From Patescibacteria group bacterium (GTDB taxonomy: Bacteria; Patescibacteriota; Gracilibacteria; Absconditabacterales; Absconditicoccaceae): a stretch of DNA of 35,952 nucleotides. The translations under genes and the position numbers were made by a program. The DNA is taken from assembly GCA_017992195.1 (NCBI GenBank), contig JAGOPC010000008.1, forward strand, positions 1 to 35,952, read 5' to 3'. Numbering within the stretch: the stretch's first letter is position 1; every line of letters begins with the position of its first letter. This document shows positions 14,542 to 17,950 of the stretch, piece after piece. The notes beneath the pieces were generated by a model, which was given only the letters and a program-made list of their open reading frames with translations, had not been told where the DNA came from and searched no databases.

Positions 14542-14997
14542 ATGCAGAAAACACACTTCTCAATTGATATTAACGCTCCTAAAGAAAAAGTTTGGGATAC
14601 TATGTTAGGCGCTGAAACATATAAGCAATGGACAGCTCCATTCAATCCGGGTTCATTCTTTGAAGGTGATTGGTCAAAATGATCAGAAATGCGTTTCATC
14701 TGACCAGATCCGAAAGATCCAACACAGATGGGAGGTATGCTGGCCGTAGTGGAAGAGAATAAACCGCATGAGTTCATCTCACTGAGATATGAAGGAGAGA
14801 TCAGAAATGGAGAAATTCATAAAGATGAAAACCTATCATGGATCGGCGCTCATGAGAACTATACTTTGACAGAGAAAGACGGTGTGACAACAGTAGACGT
14901 GGATATTGATGTTGATGAAAGTTTTCAGGAGTTTATGAAAGATGCATGGCCAAAAGCGTTGCAGGCGTTGAAAGAGATAAGCGAGAAAGGGGAGTAA
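14542..14997 (+). CDS. SRPBCC (AHSA1-like) domain protein
   Basis: The N terminus HFSIDINAPKEKVWDTMLG, followed by YKQWTAPFNPGS and FEGDWSKGSEMRFIGPDP, is the classic start of the START-like SRPBCC fold of the AHSA1 branch. A central beta strand EFISLRYEG and the C-terminal helix EFMKDAWPKALQALKEI complete it. Such proteins have a hydrophobic ligand-binding cavity, but the ligand cannot be predicted. 151 aa, usual length. Two glycines are TGA. It lies 33 bases ahead of a second SRPBCC gene on the same strand, so the two are probably co-transcribed and may come from an old duplication. Confidence 0.85.
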
Positions 14998-15030: not shown

Positions 15031-15456
15031 ATGCCTGCAATAACCGTATCAACAACCGTTAACGCGCCTATCGATCACGTATGGGAGGTGTGGAACAATC
15101 CGGAACATATTACACAGTGGTGCTTCGCATCAGATGACTGGCATGCTCCTAAAGCAGAAAATGATCTTCGTGTAGGCGGAAAGTTTACGACAAGGATGGA
15201 AGCGAAAGATGGAAGCTTCGGATTTGAGTTCGGAGGAATGTATACAAACATTAATGGTAAAGAAACTATTGAGTACTCTATGGATGATGGAAGAAAGGTA
15301 AGTATTAAGTTTGAAGATATGGGTGATAGCACGAAAGTGACAGAAACATTTGATGCAGAAACGCAGAACTCAGAAGAGATGCAAAGAGCCGGTCGGCAGG
15401 CGATCTTAGATAACTTTAAGAAGCGTGCGGAGGAGACATGACCAGCCTTATCGTAG
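15031..15456 (+). CDS. SRPBCC (AHSA1-like) domain protein, second copy
   Basis: TVSTTVNAPIDHVWEVWNNP, EHITQWCFASDDW and LRVGGKFTTRMEAKDG are clear AHSA1 signatures, followed by strands ETIEYSMDDGRKV and a C-terminal helix MQRAGRQAILDNFKKRAEE. 141 aa; a TGA at 15439 is read as Gly, so the chain ends GPALS before TAG at 15454. The standard code would trim only five residues. Same orientation as and close behind the first SRPBCC gene. Ligand unknown; some relatives are annotated as activators of Hsp90 ATPase, but that role should not be assumed. Confidence 0.87.
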
Positions 15457-15478
15457 ATTAAATTTCCTCTTGCAATCT

Positions 15479-15506
15479 TGTACAATATGTACATAATGTA
15501 CATATT
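15479..15506. promoter_or_regulatory. TGTACA operator array of the toxin-antitoxin locus
   Basis: Three TGTACA hexamers start at 15479, 15488 and 15497, exactly 9 bp apart. The last two lie in a perfect 11-bp inverted repeat around a single A (15484-15506). The array ends nine bases before the -10 TATAAC (15516-15521) of the antitoxin gene, so a bound protein would cover the -35 region. TGTACA is the known core of the E. coli YefM-YoeB operator, so this is very probably the autoregulatory site of the YefM-type antitoxin. Confidence 0.75.
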
Positions 15507-15526
15507 TAATTGGCTTATAACCTAAG

Positions 15527-15796
15527 ATGAATACAATTTCTATTGCAGAGTTCCGTAAAAATATGGCTACGTACCTTGATACGGTTAAGTATAAACGCAG
15601 ACCGATTTTAGTTGGTAAAAGAAACCATCCTGATTTTGTTATCATCCCTGCGCTCAGTGAAGAAGACCGTGAGATGTATAACTCAACAAACTTCTGGAAA
15701 GAATTGGAAGAGGCGAGAGCAGAAGTAAAAAACGGAAATTTTTATACTCTTGATGAGGTAAAAGAAATGCTTAAAAAGAAAAGAAAGTCAAAATAA
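15527..15796 (+). CDS. Phd/YefM-family antitoxin
   Basis: MNTISIAEFRKNMATYLDTV is the N-terminal DNA-binding fold of YefM/Phd antitoxins, followed by RRPILVGKRNHPDFVIIP (the strand and loop of that family). The C-terminal part, rich in Glu and Lys (FWKELEEARAEVKNG...LDEVKEML), would be disordered until it wraps the toxin. 89 aa. It neutralises the RelE-type toxin encoded 29 bases downstream and represses its own promoter through the TGTACA array just upstream (inference from the family and the site). The -10 TATAAC ends five bases before the ATG, with no ribosome site, so the mRNA is probably leaderless. No TGA codons. Confidence 0.88.
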   Translation: MNTISIAEFRKNMATYLDTVKYKRRPILVGKRNHPDFVIIPALSEEDREMYNSTNFWKELEEARAEVKNGNFYTLDEVKEMLKKKRKSK

Positions 15797-15825: not shown

Positions 15826-16092
15826 ATGCAACTTCGAAAAGTGAGTATACCTCCTAGGGTATATAAATACCTAGAAAAATTAGAAAATAATATAGCAGAT
15901 AGAATTGTTGAAAAGTTATACTACTATGCCTCTCTGCCTAATCCTAAAGACTACGCAGAAGCTGTAGTGGATTTCGAGTATTGATCTCATAGATATCGCA
16001 TTGGTGACTATCGTGTGATAGTTGATTTTGATGATGAAGGAAGGATGATTATCGTTGGGTTGATCGGAAATAGGAGAGATGTATATAAATAA
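15826..16092 (+). CDS. RelE/ParE-family toxin
   Basis: 88 aa with an N-terminal helical hairpin (PPRVYKYLEKLENNIADRIVEKL) and the RelE-family C-terminal signature FEYGSHRYRIGDYRVIVDF followed by IIVGLIGNRRDVYK. Family members with a YefM antitoxin usually cut ribosome-bound mRNA; the conserved Arg and Tyr residues of this region are present. Gly53, right before SHRYRIGDYR, is a TGA codon, so in a standard-code cell the product would stop at residue 52 without its catalytic end. It follows the antitoxin by 29 bases and is doubtless in the same operon. The true stop is TAA at 16090. Confidence 0.88.
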
Positions 16093-16118
16093 AAAAACCA
16101 GAACGAAAAACGTCCTGG
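16091..16118 (-). terminator. Terminator of the 281-aa paralogue
   Basis: On the minus strand: CCAGGACG, loop TTTTT, CGTTCTGG (one G-U pair), then seven T. Its sequence is closely related to the terminator at 17126-17152 of the sister gene. Confidence 0.8.
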
Positions 16119-16139
16119 CTGCGCGATCTTTAATAATAC

Positions 16140-16985
16140 TTACTTTCATTCTTTGATCTCCTTAAAATCCTCTATGTAAAGCATTGTGTTATTGATTTTA
16201 AGGTACTCTCCTTCGATGCTTACTTTCAGCATTCCCGGATTAAGTATATAGCCCTTCAGTCCTACCTCTGCCACTTGATAGTGAAATATTCGATCGAGAG
16301 GAGTGAATGTAAGACTTTTTAAAAGGTAAGCTGAACGGTGTATAGCAGGTTCCTGTTTGCCGTCGTATTTTTCCCATGCTGTAGCTTTAAAAGGATTCAT
16401 ATCCTCATGGGGAAAAGCAGATACTATGACACTGTAGGGGGTTTCAGGAAGATTTACTACAGTAGTTCGTTCATCTATCTTCATTGGTTTGTCCTTCCAA
16501 TACACGTGCTCTTCATCTTTATCAATACGTATTATAGACCAGCCGATAGTAGAAATGGTTAAAAATGTGTCCTTGTCGATAAATTTGCACTGCCATTTTT
16601 TATTTTGCTGATCTGCTTCGGTGTTAAACGCATATACCTTTAACGTTTCGCCAGTAAAGGAATGGATGGTTATGTACTCCTTAGTGCGCAGAACAATCCG
16701 CTGGTGCTCGATATCGATATGTTGGCTCATAATAACCTTATATCTTTCACGACTTTTGATGGTGCCGATAAACCGGTTTTCCTGGCGATCCCATACCTTA
16801 ATTTGCATAAACCATACTTCATTATTCTCTTTATGATCAAAATCATATGGTTTGGTAAATGCGATAAACCAGAAACGGTCATCTTCCATGGTTGCCCTGG
16901 GGCGCCACTTTAGTAGTTTGTTGTTCAGCGCATTCCACATGGTATTTTCGTCATGTGTAAATGATATTTGTTGTTGGTTGTCCAT
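16140..16985 (-). CDS. Paralogue A of a tandem pair of unknown beta-rich proteins, 281 aa
   Basis: Unknown family, clearly related to the next gene. Shared features include an N-terminal helix, then RFWFIAFTKPYDF matching YWFIVMTKTPTNH, then VWFMQIKVWDRQENRFIG matching TWYRKIWVWDTETDQMVN, and a C-terminal strand EGEYLKINN matching EENWLVADE. The repeating W/F-x-V/I strands and turns such as DRQEN look like a beta-propeller (inference). Start ATG 16985 (MDNQQQ) matches the start of paralogue B and lies about 90 bases after the promoter. The last TGA is Gly, so the chain ends EIKEGK before TAA 16142-16140. No signal peptide. Confidence 0.7.
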
Positions 16986-17082
16986 AAAAATTTTGTTTAA
17001 AAACCTGTTTTTGAATAAGATTAATTGTACGTACTCAGAGCTCGTCAAACTCATGCTTTGTAATGTTAAAGATCGCAAAGTT

Positions 17083-17110
17083 ATTATATACAACTAAATG
17101 ATGGAGTCAA
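17083..17110 (-). promoter_or_regulatory. Promoter of paralogue A
   Basis: Minus strand: TTGACT (17110-17105), 16-bp spacer, TATAAT (17088-17083). The same -35, spacing and -10 occur before paralogue B. The leader that follows contains TCTTTAACAT and AAGCAT in both. Confidence 0.7.
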
Positions 17111-17950
17111 TATCTCTTGGTCAACAAAAAAACCAGAGCATAAACGCCCTGGTTGTGGTCTTTCTCTGTGTCACCACAGAGGTATTTTTATCTCGTCTGC
17201 AACCAGCCAGTTCTCTTCTATTTGTATGGTATCAGTCGCAGGCATGTTGTGATAAGTATGAAGCGAGGCCCTTTGTGCAAAACATATTTCAGTATGTATC
17301 GCTAAAGTGCGGGAGTATTGCCATACCCGTAGGCCCTTGTGCAAAATATTATCGCCTGCCAGTATAAACAGCACGGTATTCTTTTTATCCTTGAAATACT
17401 TGATTTCAGTGATTTGCCGTACAATAGTTTCTATACTTGGAAACGCATAAATATCCACTTTATCATTGTAAGCTTCTTCTCCAATATAAAGTCGGTAGAT
17501 TTCATCTTGCCCTGAGACAAGGAGAGTCTTTTCGTCTACAAATTGCCATTCAATCCGCTTTGGTGCATGATGATGACGAATCACGTGTAGAGAAAAACCA
17601 CCATCTTTGAAAAAACTTACTACCTTTATAATATTTTCTTTGATAAACAAGATTTTATTGCACTTGTAGTTTATGGAGAAGATCCCTGAATTGATGAGAC
17701 CTACTTCATTGTTTCTATTAAAGCTCATCTTGTTAACCATCTGGTCAGTTTCTGTATCCCATACCCATATTTTTCTATACCATGTCTCATGGTTCGTTGG
17801 GGTTTTCGTCATAACAATGAACCAATACCGCTGTAGATTATCGCATTTGTGCAAATCGCCGCGTAGGTACTGTCTCATAGCTTGTCCATGTTGGGACATG
17901 TACTCCCATAAAGCTTTTGATTTTTCGTCGAATGTTTTCATTTTGTACAT
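17084..17950 (-). CDS. Paralogue B of the tandem pair, unknown; its 3' end is ambiguous
   Basis: Diverged copy of paralogue A, with motifs YWFIVMTKTP, KIWVWDTETDQ, WQFVDEKTLLVSG and IQIEENWLVADE; probably a beta-propeller-like protein (inference). Residue 260 is a TGA. Homology with paralogue A ends just there, at about residue 259. If TGA is Gly, reading runs on for 28 residues through the terminator to TAA at 17086-17084; an mRNA ended at the terminator (about 17126) would then lack a stop codon. This is the only gene in the window where TGA sits where a stop is expected, so the functional end may be 17171. Start ATG 17950; a second ATG at 17941 is possible. Confidence 0.65.
17126..17152 (-). 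terminator. Terminator of paralogue B
   Basis: Minus strand: CCAGGGC, loop GTTTAT, GCTCTGG (one G-U pair), then seven T. Homologous to the terminator at 16091-16118. Confidence 0.8.
17164..17181 (-). other. Hairpin with GTGA loop holding the last TGA codon of paralogue B
   Basis: A perfect 7-bp stem CTCTGTG / CACAGAG encloses a four-base loop GTGA (GNRA type). The TGA in this loop is in frame at codon 260 of paralogue B, twelve bases before the terminator stem begins. Confidence 0.6.

What the first reader, a model, noticed from the sequence alone, without database searches (positions are those of the whole stretch)
15479..15521. Three TGTACA motifs at exact 9-bp steps control the toxin-antitoxin promoter
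TGTACA starts at 15479, 15488 and 15497, the last two inside a 23-bp perfect palindrome, just upstream of the -10 of a YefM-type antitoxin gene. E. coli YefM also recognises TGTACA. The operator core thus seems kept across a very large distance and across a change of code, but with a tighter, threefold arrangement.
Basis: partly seen in the sequence, partly recalled or inferred. Interest (0 to 1): 0.6.

Follow-up and report, generated by a model that had tools for sequence, protein, structure and literature searches.

The report
Antitoxin operator with nine-base steps
The three TGTACA boxes are almost certainly the self-control switch of a small toxin-antitoxin pair, and their unusual nine-base spacing (relatives use 11 to 13) turns out to be the shared mark of one branch of the antitoxin family, which makes it a new variant of a known switch, not a one-off.

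Summary
Observation confirmed. TGTACA starts at 15479, 15488 and 15497, with a 23-bp odd palindrome at 15484-15506, 24 bp before a Phd/YefM antitoxin gene. No shuffle in 100,000 reproduces it, and no other place in the genome has even two TGTACA at this step.

GTAC-cored box pairs lie upstream of 49 of 109 Phd/YefM antitoxin genes of related genomes (0.7 expected by shuffling). The core is therefore an old operator, already known from E. coli yefM and P1 phd. The usual step is 12 bp (also 13 or 11).

The 9-bp step is new to me and not a one-off. It marks one protein clade of Phd/YefM antitoxins. All 16 clade members with two or more exact boxes space them at 9, 18 or 27 bp; one has four boxes. 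On the tree the spacing changes once (shuffles: 9-12). Twelve of the 16 were found by protein profile alone.

Reader corrections: the toxin is RelE/ParE-like, not YoeB; the other clade members' toxins checked are MazF/PemK-like, so the window's antitoxin looks like a 9-bp DNA-binding head on a RelE-binding tail. The better -10 is CATAAT at 15492-15497, inside the boxes, not downstream.

Binding and repression are inferred.

The parts
15470..15475 (+). probable -35 element TTGCAA
   Evidence: best promoter-like pair in the region; inferred
15479..15484 (.). operator box 1, TGTACA
   Evidence: sequence
15488..15493 (.). operator box 2, TGTACA, 9 bp from box 1
   Evidence: sequence
15497..15502 (.). 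operator box 3, TGTACA, 9 bp from box 2
   Evidence: sequence
15484..15506 (.). 23-bp palindrome AATATGTACAT-A-ATGTACATATT holding boxes 2 and 3
   Evidence: inverted repeat, 11-bp arms 100% complementary
15492..15497 (+). probable -10 element CATAAT between boxes 2 and 3, ending just before the GTAC of box 3
   Evidence: the same register (-10 ending at the GTAC of the next box) is common in relatives; inferred
15527..15796 (+). antitoxin gene, Phd/YefM family, 89 aa (P0001); N-terminal part of the 9-bp clade, C-terminal part like RelE-binding tails
   Evidence: PF02604 1.6e-10, TIGR01552 1.5e-7; tree; half-by-half comparison
15826..16092 (+). toxin gene, RelE/ParE-like, 88 aa under code 25 (P0002); one in-frame TGA read as Gly53 at 15982-15984
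   Evidence: PF05016 1.2e-5; 2khe 3.7e-10
16096..16120 (-). terminator-like hairpin between the toxin gene and the convergent gene
   Evidence: pattern scan, 1 found against 0.3 expected

Best explanation
A self-regulated type II toxin-antitoxin operon. Dimers of the Phd/YefM-type antitoxin recognise each GTAC-cored palindromic box with the conserved N-terminal arginine (R10). Three boxes at 9-bp steps cover the promoter from the -35/-10 spacer through the -10 to about 20 bp before the start codon, so a row of bound dimers shuts out RNA polymerase. The toxin probably acts as co-repressor and, in excess, as de-repressor, as in YefM-YoeB and Phd-Doc. The 9-bp step is set by the antitoxin's DNA-binding half: it belongs to a clade that uses 9-bp multiples (2 to 4 boxes), whatever the toxin. 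Steps shown here: box array, family assignments, enrichment and clade-specific spacing of boxes, overlap with predicted promoters. Inferred: binding, repression, role of R10, co-repression, occupancy of all three boxes, the spliced origin of the antitoxin.
For: Array not from chance. Of 109 related antitoxin loci, 75 have GTAC, 53 TGTACA and 49 a pair 8-14 bp apart within 80 bp upstream; shuffles give 26, 4.6 and 0.7; control stretches of the same loci give 0 TGTACA and 0 pairs. Spacing: 9-bp clade exact pairs only at 9, 18, 27; other antitoxins 12 (38 pairs), 13 (11), 11 (4), 9 (1). Protein tree puts the window and the other 9-bp loci on one side of a branch, 91/81 support, one change of spacing against 9-12 in shuffles. 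Members found by protein profile only repeat the 9-bp multiple. Predicted -10 lies on or next to a box in 70 of 84 loci. Window antitoxin residues 1-44 rank closest to 9-bp, MazF-paired members, residues 45-89 to RelE-paired antitoxins.
Against: No binding or expression data. The clade's support is 91/81, below the tree tool's 95 star, on only 49 columns. Four of 20 clade members lack two exact boxes (L125, L126, L132, L161), and L107, L123, L124 and L127 keep exact boxes only at 18 or 27 bp, with degenerate ones between. The window's own promoter match is no better than chance on its own. The comparison by halves rests on short segments and a small local set.
Confidence: 0.87

Rival explanations
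1. The boxes are ordinary YefM-type operator boxes whose spacing is loose; 9 bp here is drift of a 12-bp operator, and one of the three boxes is a spare.
For: Spacings 11, 12 and 13 all occur in the class, and triple arrays exist at 12 or 13 bp (L035, L016).
Against: Spacing follows antitoxin clades: one change between 9n and 11-13 on the tree, with 10 absent; all 16 clade members with two exact boxes use multiples of 9. In E. coli, altered spacing breaks cooperative binding (PMC3920265, PMC4803016).
Confidence: 0.08
2. The boxes are sites of an unrelated regulator that happens to sit here.
For: No binding was tested.
Against: GTAC box pairs go with Phd/YefM genes across the class, are absent from control stretches, and TGTACAN3TGTACA occurs nowhere else in the genome; a general regulator would have more sites.
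Confidence: 0.03
3. The repeats reflect promoter composition only (repeated TACAAT / ATAAT -10-like words in an AT-rich stretch), not protein binding.
For: In many loci TACAAT of a GTACAAT box is itself the predicted -10.
Against: Dinucleotide shuffles do not give the array (0 of 100,000), and fixed clade-specific spacing is not expected from promoter words.
Confidence: 0.02

Closest known systems
E. coli yefM-yoeB operator (and Enterococcus axe-txe)
   Same: TGTACA-cored palindromes overlapping the promoter of a Phd/YefM antitoxin gene (PMC7730913, PMC4803016). E. coli sequence checked here: GTAC at -32 and -20, 12 bp apart.
   Different: Two boxes 12 bp apart instead of three 9 bp apart; toxin YoeB instead of a RelE/ParE-like toxin; antitoxin of another clade.
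Phage P1 phd-doc operator
   Same: Two palindromes with a GT.AC core (TGTGT.ACACA and CGAGT.ACACG) controlling a Phd antitoxin gene (PMC4257102).
   Different: Located between the -10 and the start codon; toxin Doc; different flanks.
Phd/YefM-MazF(PemK) modules of Patescibacteria (L070, L107, L117, L123-L132, L152, L158-L162)
   Same: Same antitoxin N-terminal clade, same 9-bp multiple, 2-4 boxes.
   Different: Toxin PemK/MazF (PF02452 in 11 of 11 scanned) and, in most, another antitoxin tail ending in YSLNDLKKRYV.
Phd/YefM-RelE modules of Patescibacteria (e.g. L010, L101, L017, L022)
   Same: Closest toxins to P0002 and similar antitoxin tails.
   Different: Operator boxes at 11-13 bp, single, or absent.

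Membership tests
Phd/YefM antitoxin family (PF02604) | profile match above the curated cut-off | tested here: met
   41.1 bits, cut-off 29.8, E 1.6e-10
Phd/YefM antitoxin family (PF02604) | conserved N-terminal DNA-contact arginine (YefM R10) | tested here: met
   R10 invariant in the 13-member alignment; its role is from PMC4803016
Phd/YefM antitoxin family (PF02604) | fold beta-alpha-beta-beta of the DNA-binding domain | tested here: inconclusive
   secondary structure as expected (H6-19, E26-29, E36-41) but mean pLDDT only 52
YefM-YoeB module | YoeB toxin partner | tested here: not met
   toxin matches PF05016 ParE_toxin only, no YoeB match; no NCBIfam match
YefM-YoeB module | NCBIfam equivalog for YefM (NF008499) | tested here: not met
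   15.4 bits, cut-off 121
YefM-YoeB type operator | TGTACA cores at 12 bp centre to centre | tested here: not met
   cores present, spacing 9 and 9
RelE/ParE toxin superfamily (PF05016) | profile match above cut-off | tested here: met
   26.2 bits, cut-off 23; 2khe 3.7e-10
9-bp clade of Phd/YefM antitoxins (defined here) | protein clade membership and boxes at multiples of 9 bp | tested here: met
   tree 91/81; boxes 9, 9
autoregulated type II toxin-antitoxin system | antitoxin or complex binds its own operator and represses; antitoxin neutralises toxin | not testable with these tools
   needs experiment

The most novel reading that the evidence does not exclude
Phd/YefM antitoxins of this clade pack on DNA by a contact different from the known 12-bp mode: dimers every 9 bp, offset about -51 degrees instead of +51 degrees, able to extend over three or four boxes as a short filament. 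The DNA-binding head that sets this spacing has been exchanged between toxin classes (MazF to RelE) as a separate part.
Probability: 0.4. Interest if true: 0.6.

Novelty: new variant of a known kind. Interest (0 to 1): 0.47.

Why it matters
It gives a clean natural experiment on how an antitoxin's DNA-binding half sets the geometry of its operator: one family, one core word (GTAC), and a single switch between 12-like and 9-bp steps on the tree. Since changing the step is known to break cooperative binding in E. coli, the 9-bp clade must use another dimer-dimer contact or no contact, which can be tested directly. The window adds that operator geometry follows the antitoxin head and not the toxin.

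Tried and rejected
Chance clustering in an AT-rich stretch: rejected by shuffles. TGTACA pairs at this step as a genome-wide site: rejected. The exact TGTACA triple as a widespread motif: absent from 379 other phylum genomes; it is GTAC cores at 9 bp, not the full hexamer triple, that are shared. Close relatives of P0001 in plasmids, phages and species genomes: none. The viral-contig scan with the clade alignment could not be run. AlphaFold model of P0001: pLDDT 52, too poor to compare folds, so no fold search was made. The primary papers on the E. coli operator (Kedzierska 2007, Bailey and Hayes 2009) are not in the library; their results are cited through later papers.

Full report
What is there. 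TGTACA starts at 15479, 15488 and 15497, and boxes 2 and 3 lie in a 23-bp palindrome, 15484-15506, with one unpaired central base. The array is intergenic: the upstream AHSA1-type gene ends at 15456 under code 25, and the next start codon is at 15527. TGTACA as such is not enriched in the window (9 against 7.0 expected), but no shuffle in 100,000 of the 85-bp upstream stretch gives three TGTACA or a TGTACA-N3-TGTACA. In the 1.01-Mb genome TGTACAN3TGTACA is found only here.

The genes. 15527-15796 encodes an 89-aa Phd/YefM antitoxin (PF02604 1.6e-10; phd_fam 1.5e-7). 15826-16092 encodes an 88-aa toxin when TGA is read as glycine; it matches the RelE/ParE superfamily (PF05016) and a solved RelE-like protein, 2khe. 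It does not match YoeB, so the pair is not YefM-YoeB. Code 25 fits the window: ORFs of 120 aa or more total 14,579 residues under code 25 and 4,490 under code 11, and the longest grows from 382 to 867 aa (code 25 joins frames, so part of the gain is automatic).

The core word is general. I took 109 Phd/YefM antitoxin loci from genomes of the same class and phylum, chosen by protein only. In the 80 bp before the start codon 75 hold GTAC, 53 hold TGTACA and 49 hold two GTAC 8-14 bp apart. Dinucleotide shuffles give 26, 4.6 and 0.7 on average; stretches further upstream or inside the gene give no TGTACA and no pair. That TGTACA-cored pairs stand before yefM in diverse bacteria is known (PMC3920265, PMC7730913), and P1 phd has GT.AC palindromes too (PMC4257102), so this part is confirmation.

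The spacing is the new part. Outside the window's clade the exact pairs are 12 bp apart (38), 13 (11) or 11 (4), once 9 (L029, which also has a 12), never 10. A tree of the first 60 residues put the window with L070, L107 and L117 (support 90), the loci with 9-bp or 18-bp spacing; L029 sits elsewhere. A profile of these four then found ten more members by protein sequence, and the enlarged profile found six in another class. Their upstream regions had not been seen before. L128, L129, L130, L152, L158, L159, L160 and L162 have exact boxes 9 bp apart; L131 has four boxes at 9, 9 and 9; L127 has 18; L123 and L124 have 27; L126 and L132 have a GTAC with a one-mismatch partner at 9; L125 has no GTAC and L161 only one. 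In all, 16 of 20 members have two or more exact boxes, and every such distance is 9, 18 or 27. On a tree of the first 48 residues the 14 rows of the clade stand on one side of a branch (91/81) and the state '9n' against '11-13' changes once over 12 and 51 rows, against 9-12 changes for shuffled labels. The first three members were noticed partly because of their spacing; the sixteen later ones were not, which makes them the fair test: 12 of 12 with two exact boxes agree.

A spliced antitoxin. The toxins of the other clade members are PemK/MazF-like (PF02452 in 11 of 11 scanned). The window's is RelE-like. Residues 1-44 of the window antitoxin rank closest to the 9-bp, MazF-paired members L070, L132, L117 and L130; residues 45-89 rank closest to RelE-paired antitoxins; the toxin ranks closest to L101 and L010, RelE-like toxins. 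The simplest reading is that a 9-bp DNA-binding head is joined to a RelE-binding tail, and that operator spacing goes with the head. This rests on short segments and is an inference.

Promoter. The best promoter is TTGCAA, 16 bp, CATAAT, with the -10 ending just before the GTAC of box 3. Alone this match is not significant. In 84 loci with a promoter match of at least 8, 70 have the -10 on or beside a box, mainly in two registers: TACAAT/TACACT made from the box itself, or TATAAT ending just before the GTAC of the second box. The window follows the second register and L117 shares its GTACATAAT.

How it probably works. Each GTAC box is a two-fold site for an antitoxin dimer. R10, invariant in the clade, corresponds to one of the two YefM arginines needed for DNA binding (PMC4803016). 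At 10.5 bp per turn, 9 bp puts neighbouring dimers about 31 angstroms apart and turned -51 degrees, 12 bp about 41 angstroms and +51 degrees (established B-DNA geometry; my arithmetic). In E. coli changing the step from 12 abolishes cooperative binding to the second box (PMC3920265), so the 9-bp clade must use another contact, or bind without one. Three boxes would give a longer block over the promoter. Toxin as co-repressor and de-repression at toxin excess are carried over from YefM-YoeB and Phd-Doc and were not tested.

Change of code. The nearest N-terminal relatives, L070 and L132, also come from genomes whose antitoxin frames hold TGA, while most other clade members read as standard code. 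Other Phd/YefM antitoxins of the window's own family (L058-L067) do not have paired GTAC boxes. The operator type thus follows the antitoxin clade and not the genetic code.

Verdict. Observation correct; interpretation partly right. The operator itself is an expected one. The 9-bp clade is a new variant of a known kind, well supported by sequence and untested at the bench.

Noticed in passing
window 15982-15984 (toxin codon 53): The toxin gene has one in-frame TGA (Gly) and the antitoxin gene none, so in a standard-code host the module would make an intact antitoxin and a 52-aa toxin fragment.
   Followed up: partly
L037, L039, L042, L043, L045, L050, L052, L057, L075-L078 upstream regions: Many antitoxin genes of this class have a TATAAT-type -10 ending only 6 bp before the ATG, which suggests leaderless transcripts.
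   Followed up: no
L058-L067 upstream regions: Phd/YefM antitoxins of the window's own family lack paired GTAC boxes and several instead carry TTAATTTAG / TAAATTTA-like repeats; these may be a second operator type.
   Followed up: no
L131, upstream of the antitoxin start: Four GTAC boxes at exact 9-bp steps (GTACaatctGTACacattGTACttttcGTAC), the longest array seen.
   Followed up: partly
L016 and L035, upstream regions: Triple boxes also occur in other antitoxin clades, at 13+13 and 12+12 bp, so threefold arrays are not tied to the 9-bp step.
   Followed up: partly
window 16143-17054 and 17087-17950, minus strand: Two adjacent genes whose proteins look alike by eye (WFI..TK, VWD words) and have no clear Pfam match; possibly a tandem duplication.
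   Followed up: no
window 14542-14994 and 15031-15453: Two adjacent AHSA1-type genes directly upstream of the toxin-antitoxin operon.
   Followed up: partly
class-wide spacing table: Box spacings 11, 12 and 13 occur but 10 never does; 9 and 12 lie symmetrically about one helical turn of 10.5 bp.
   Followed up: no
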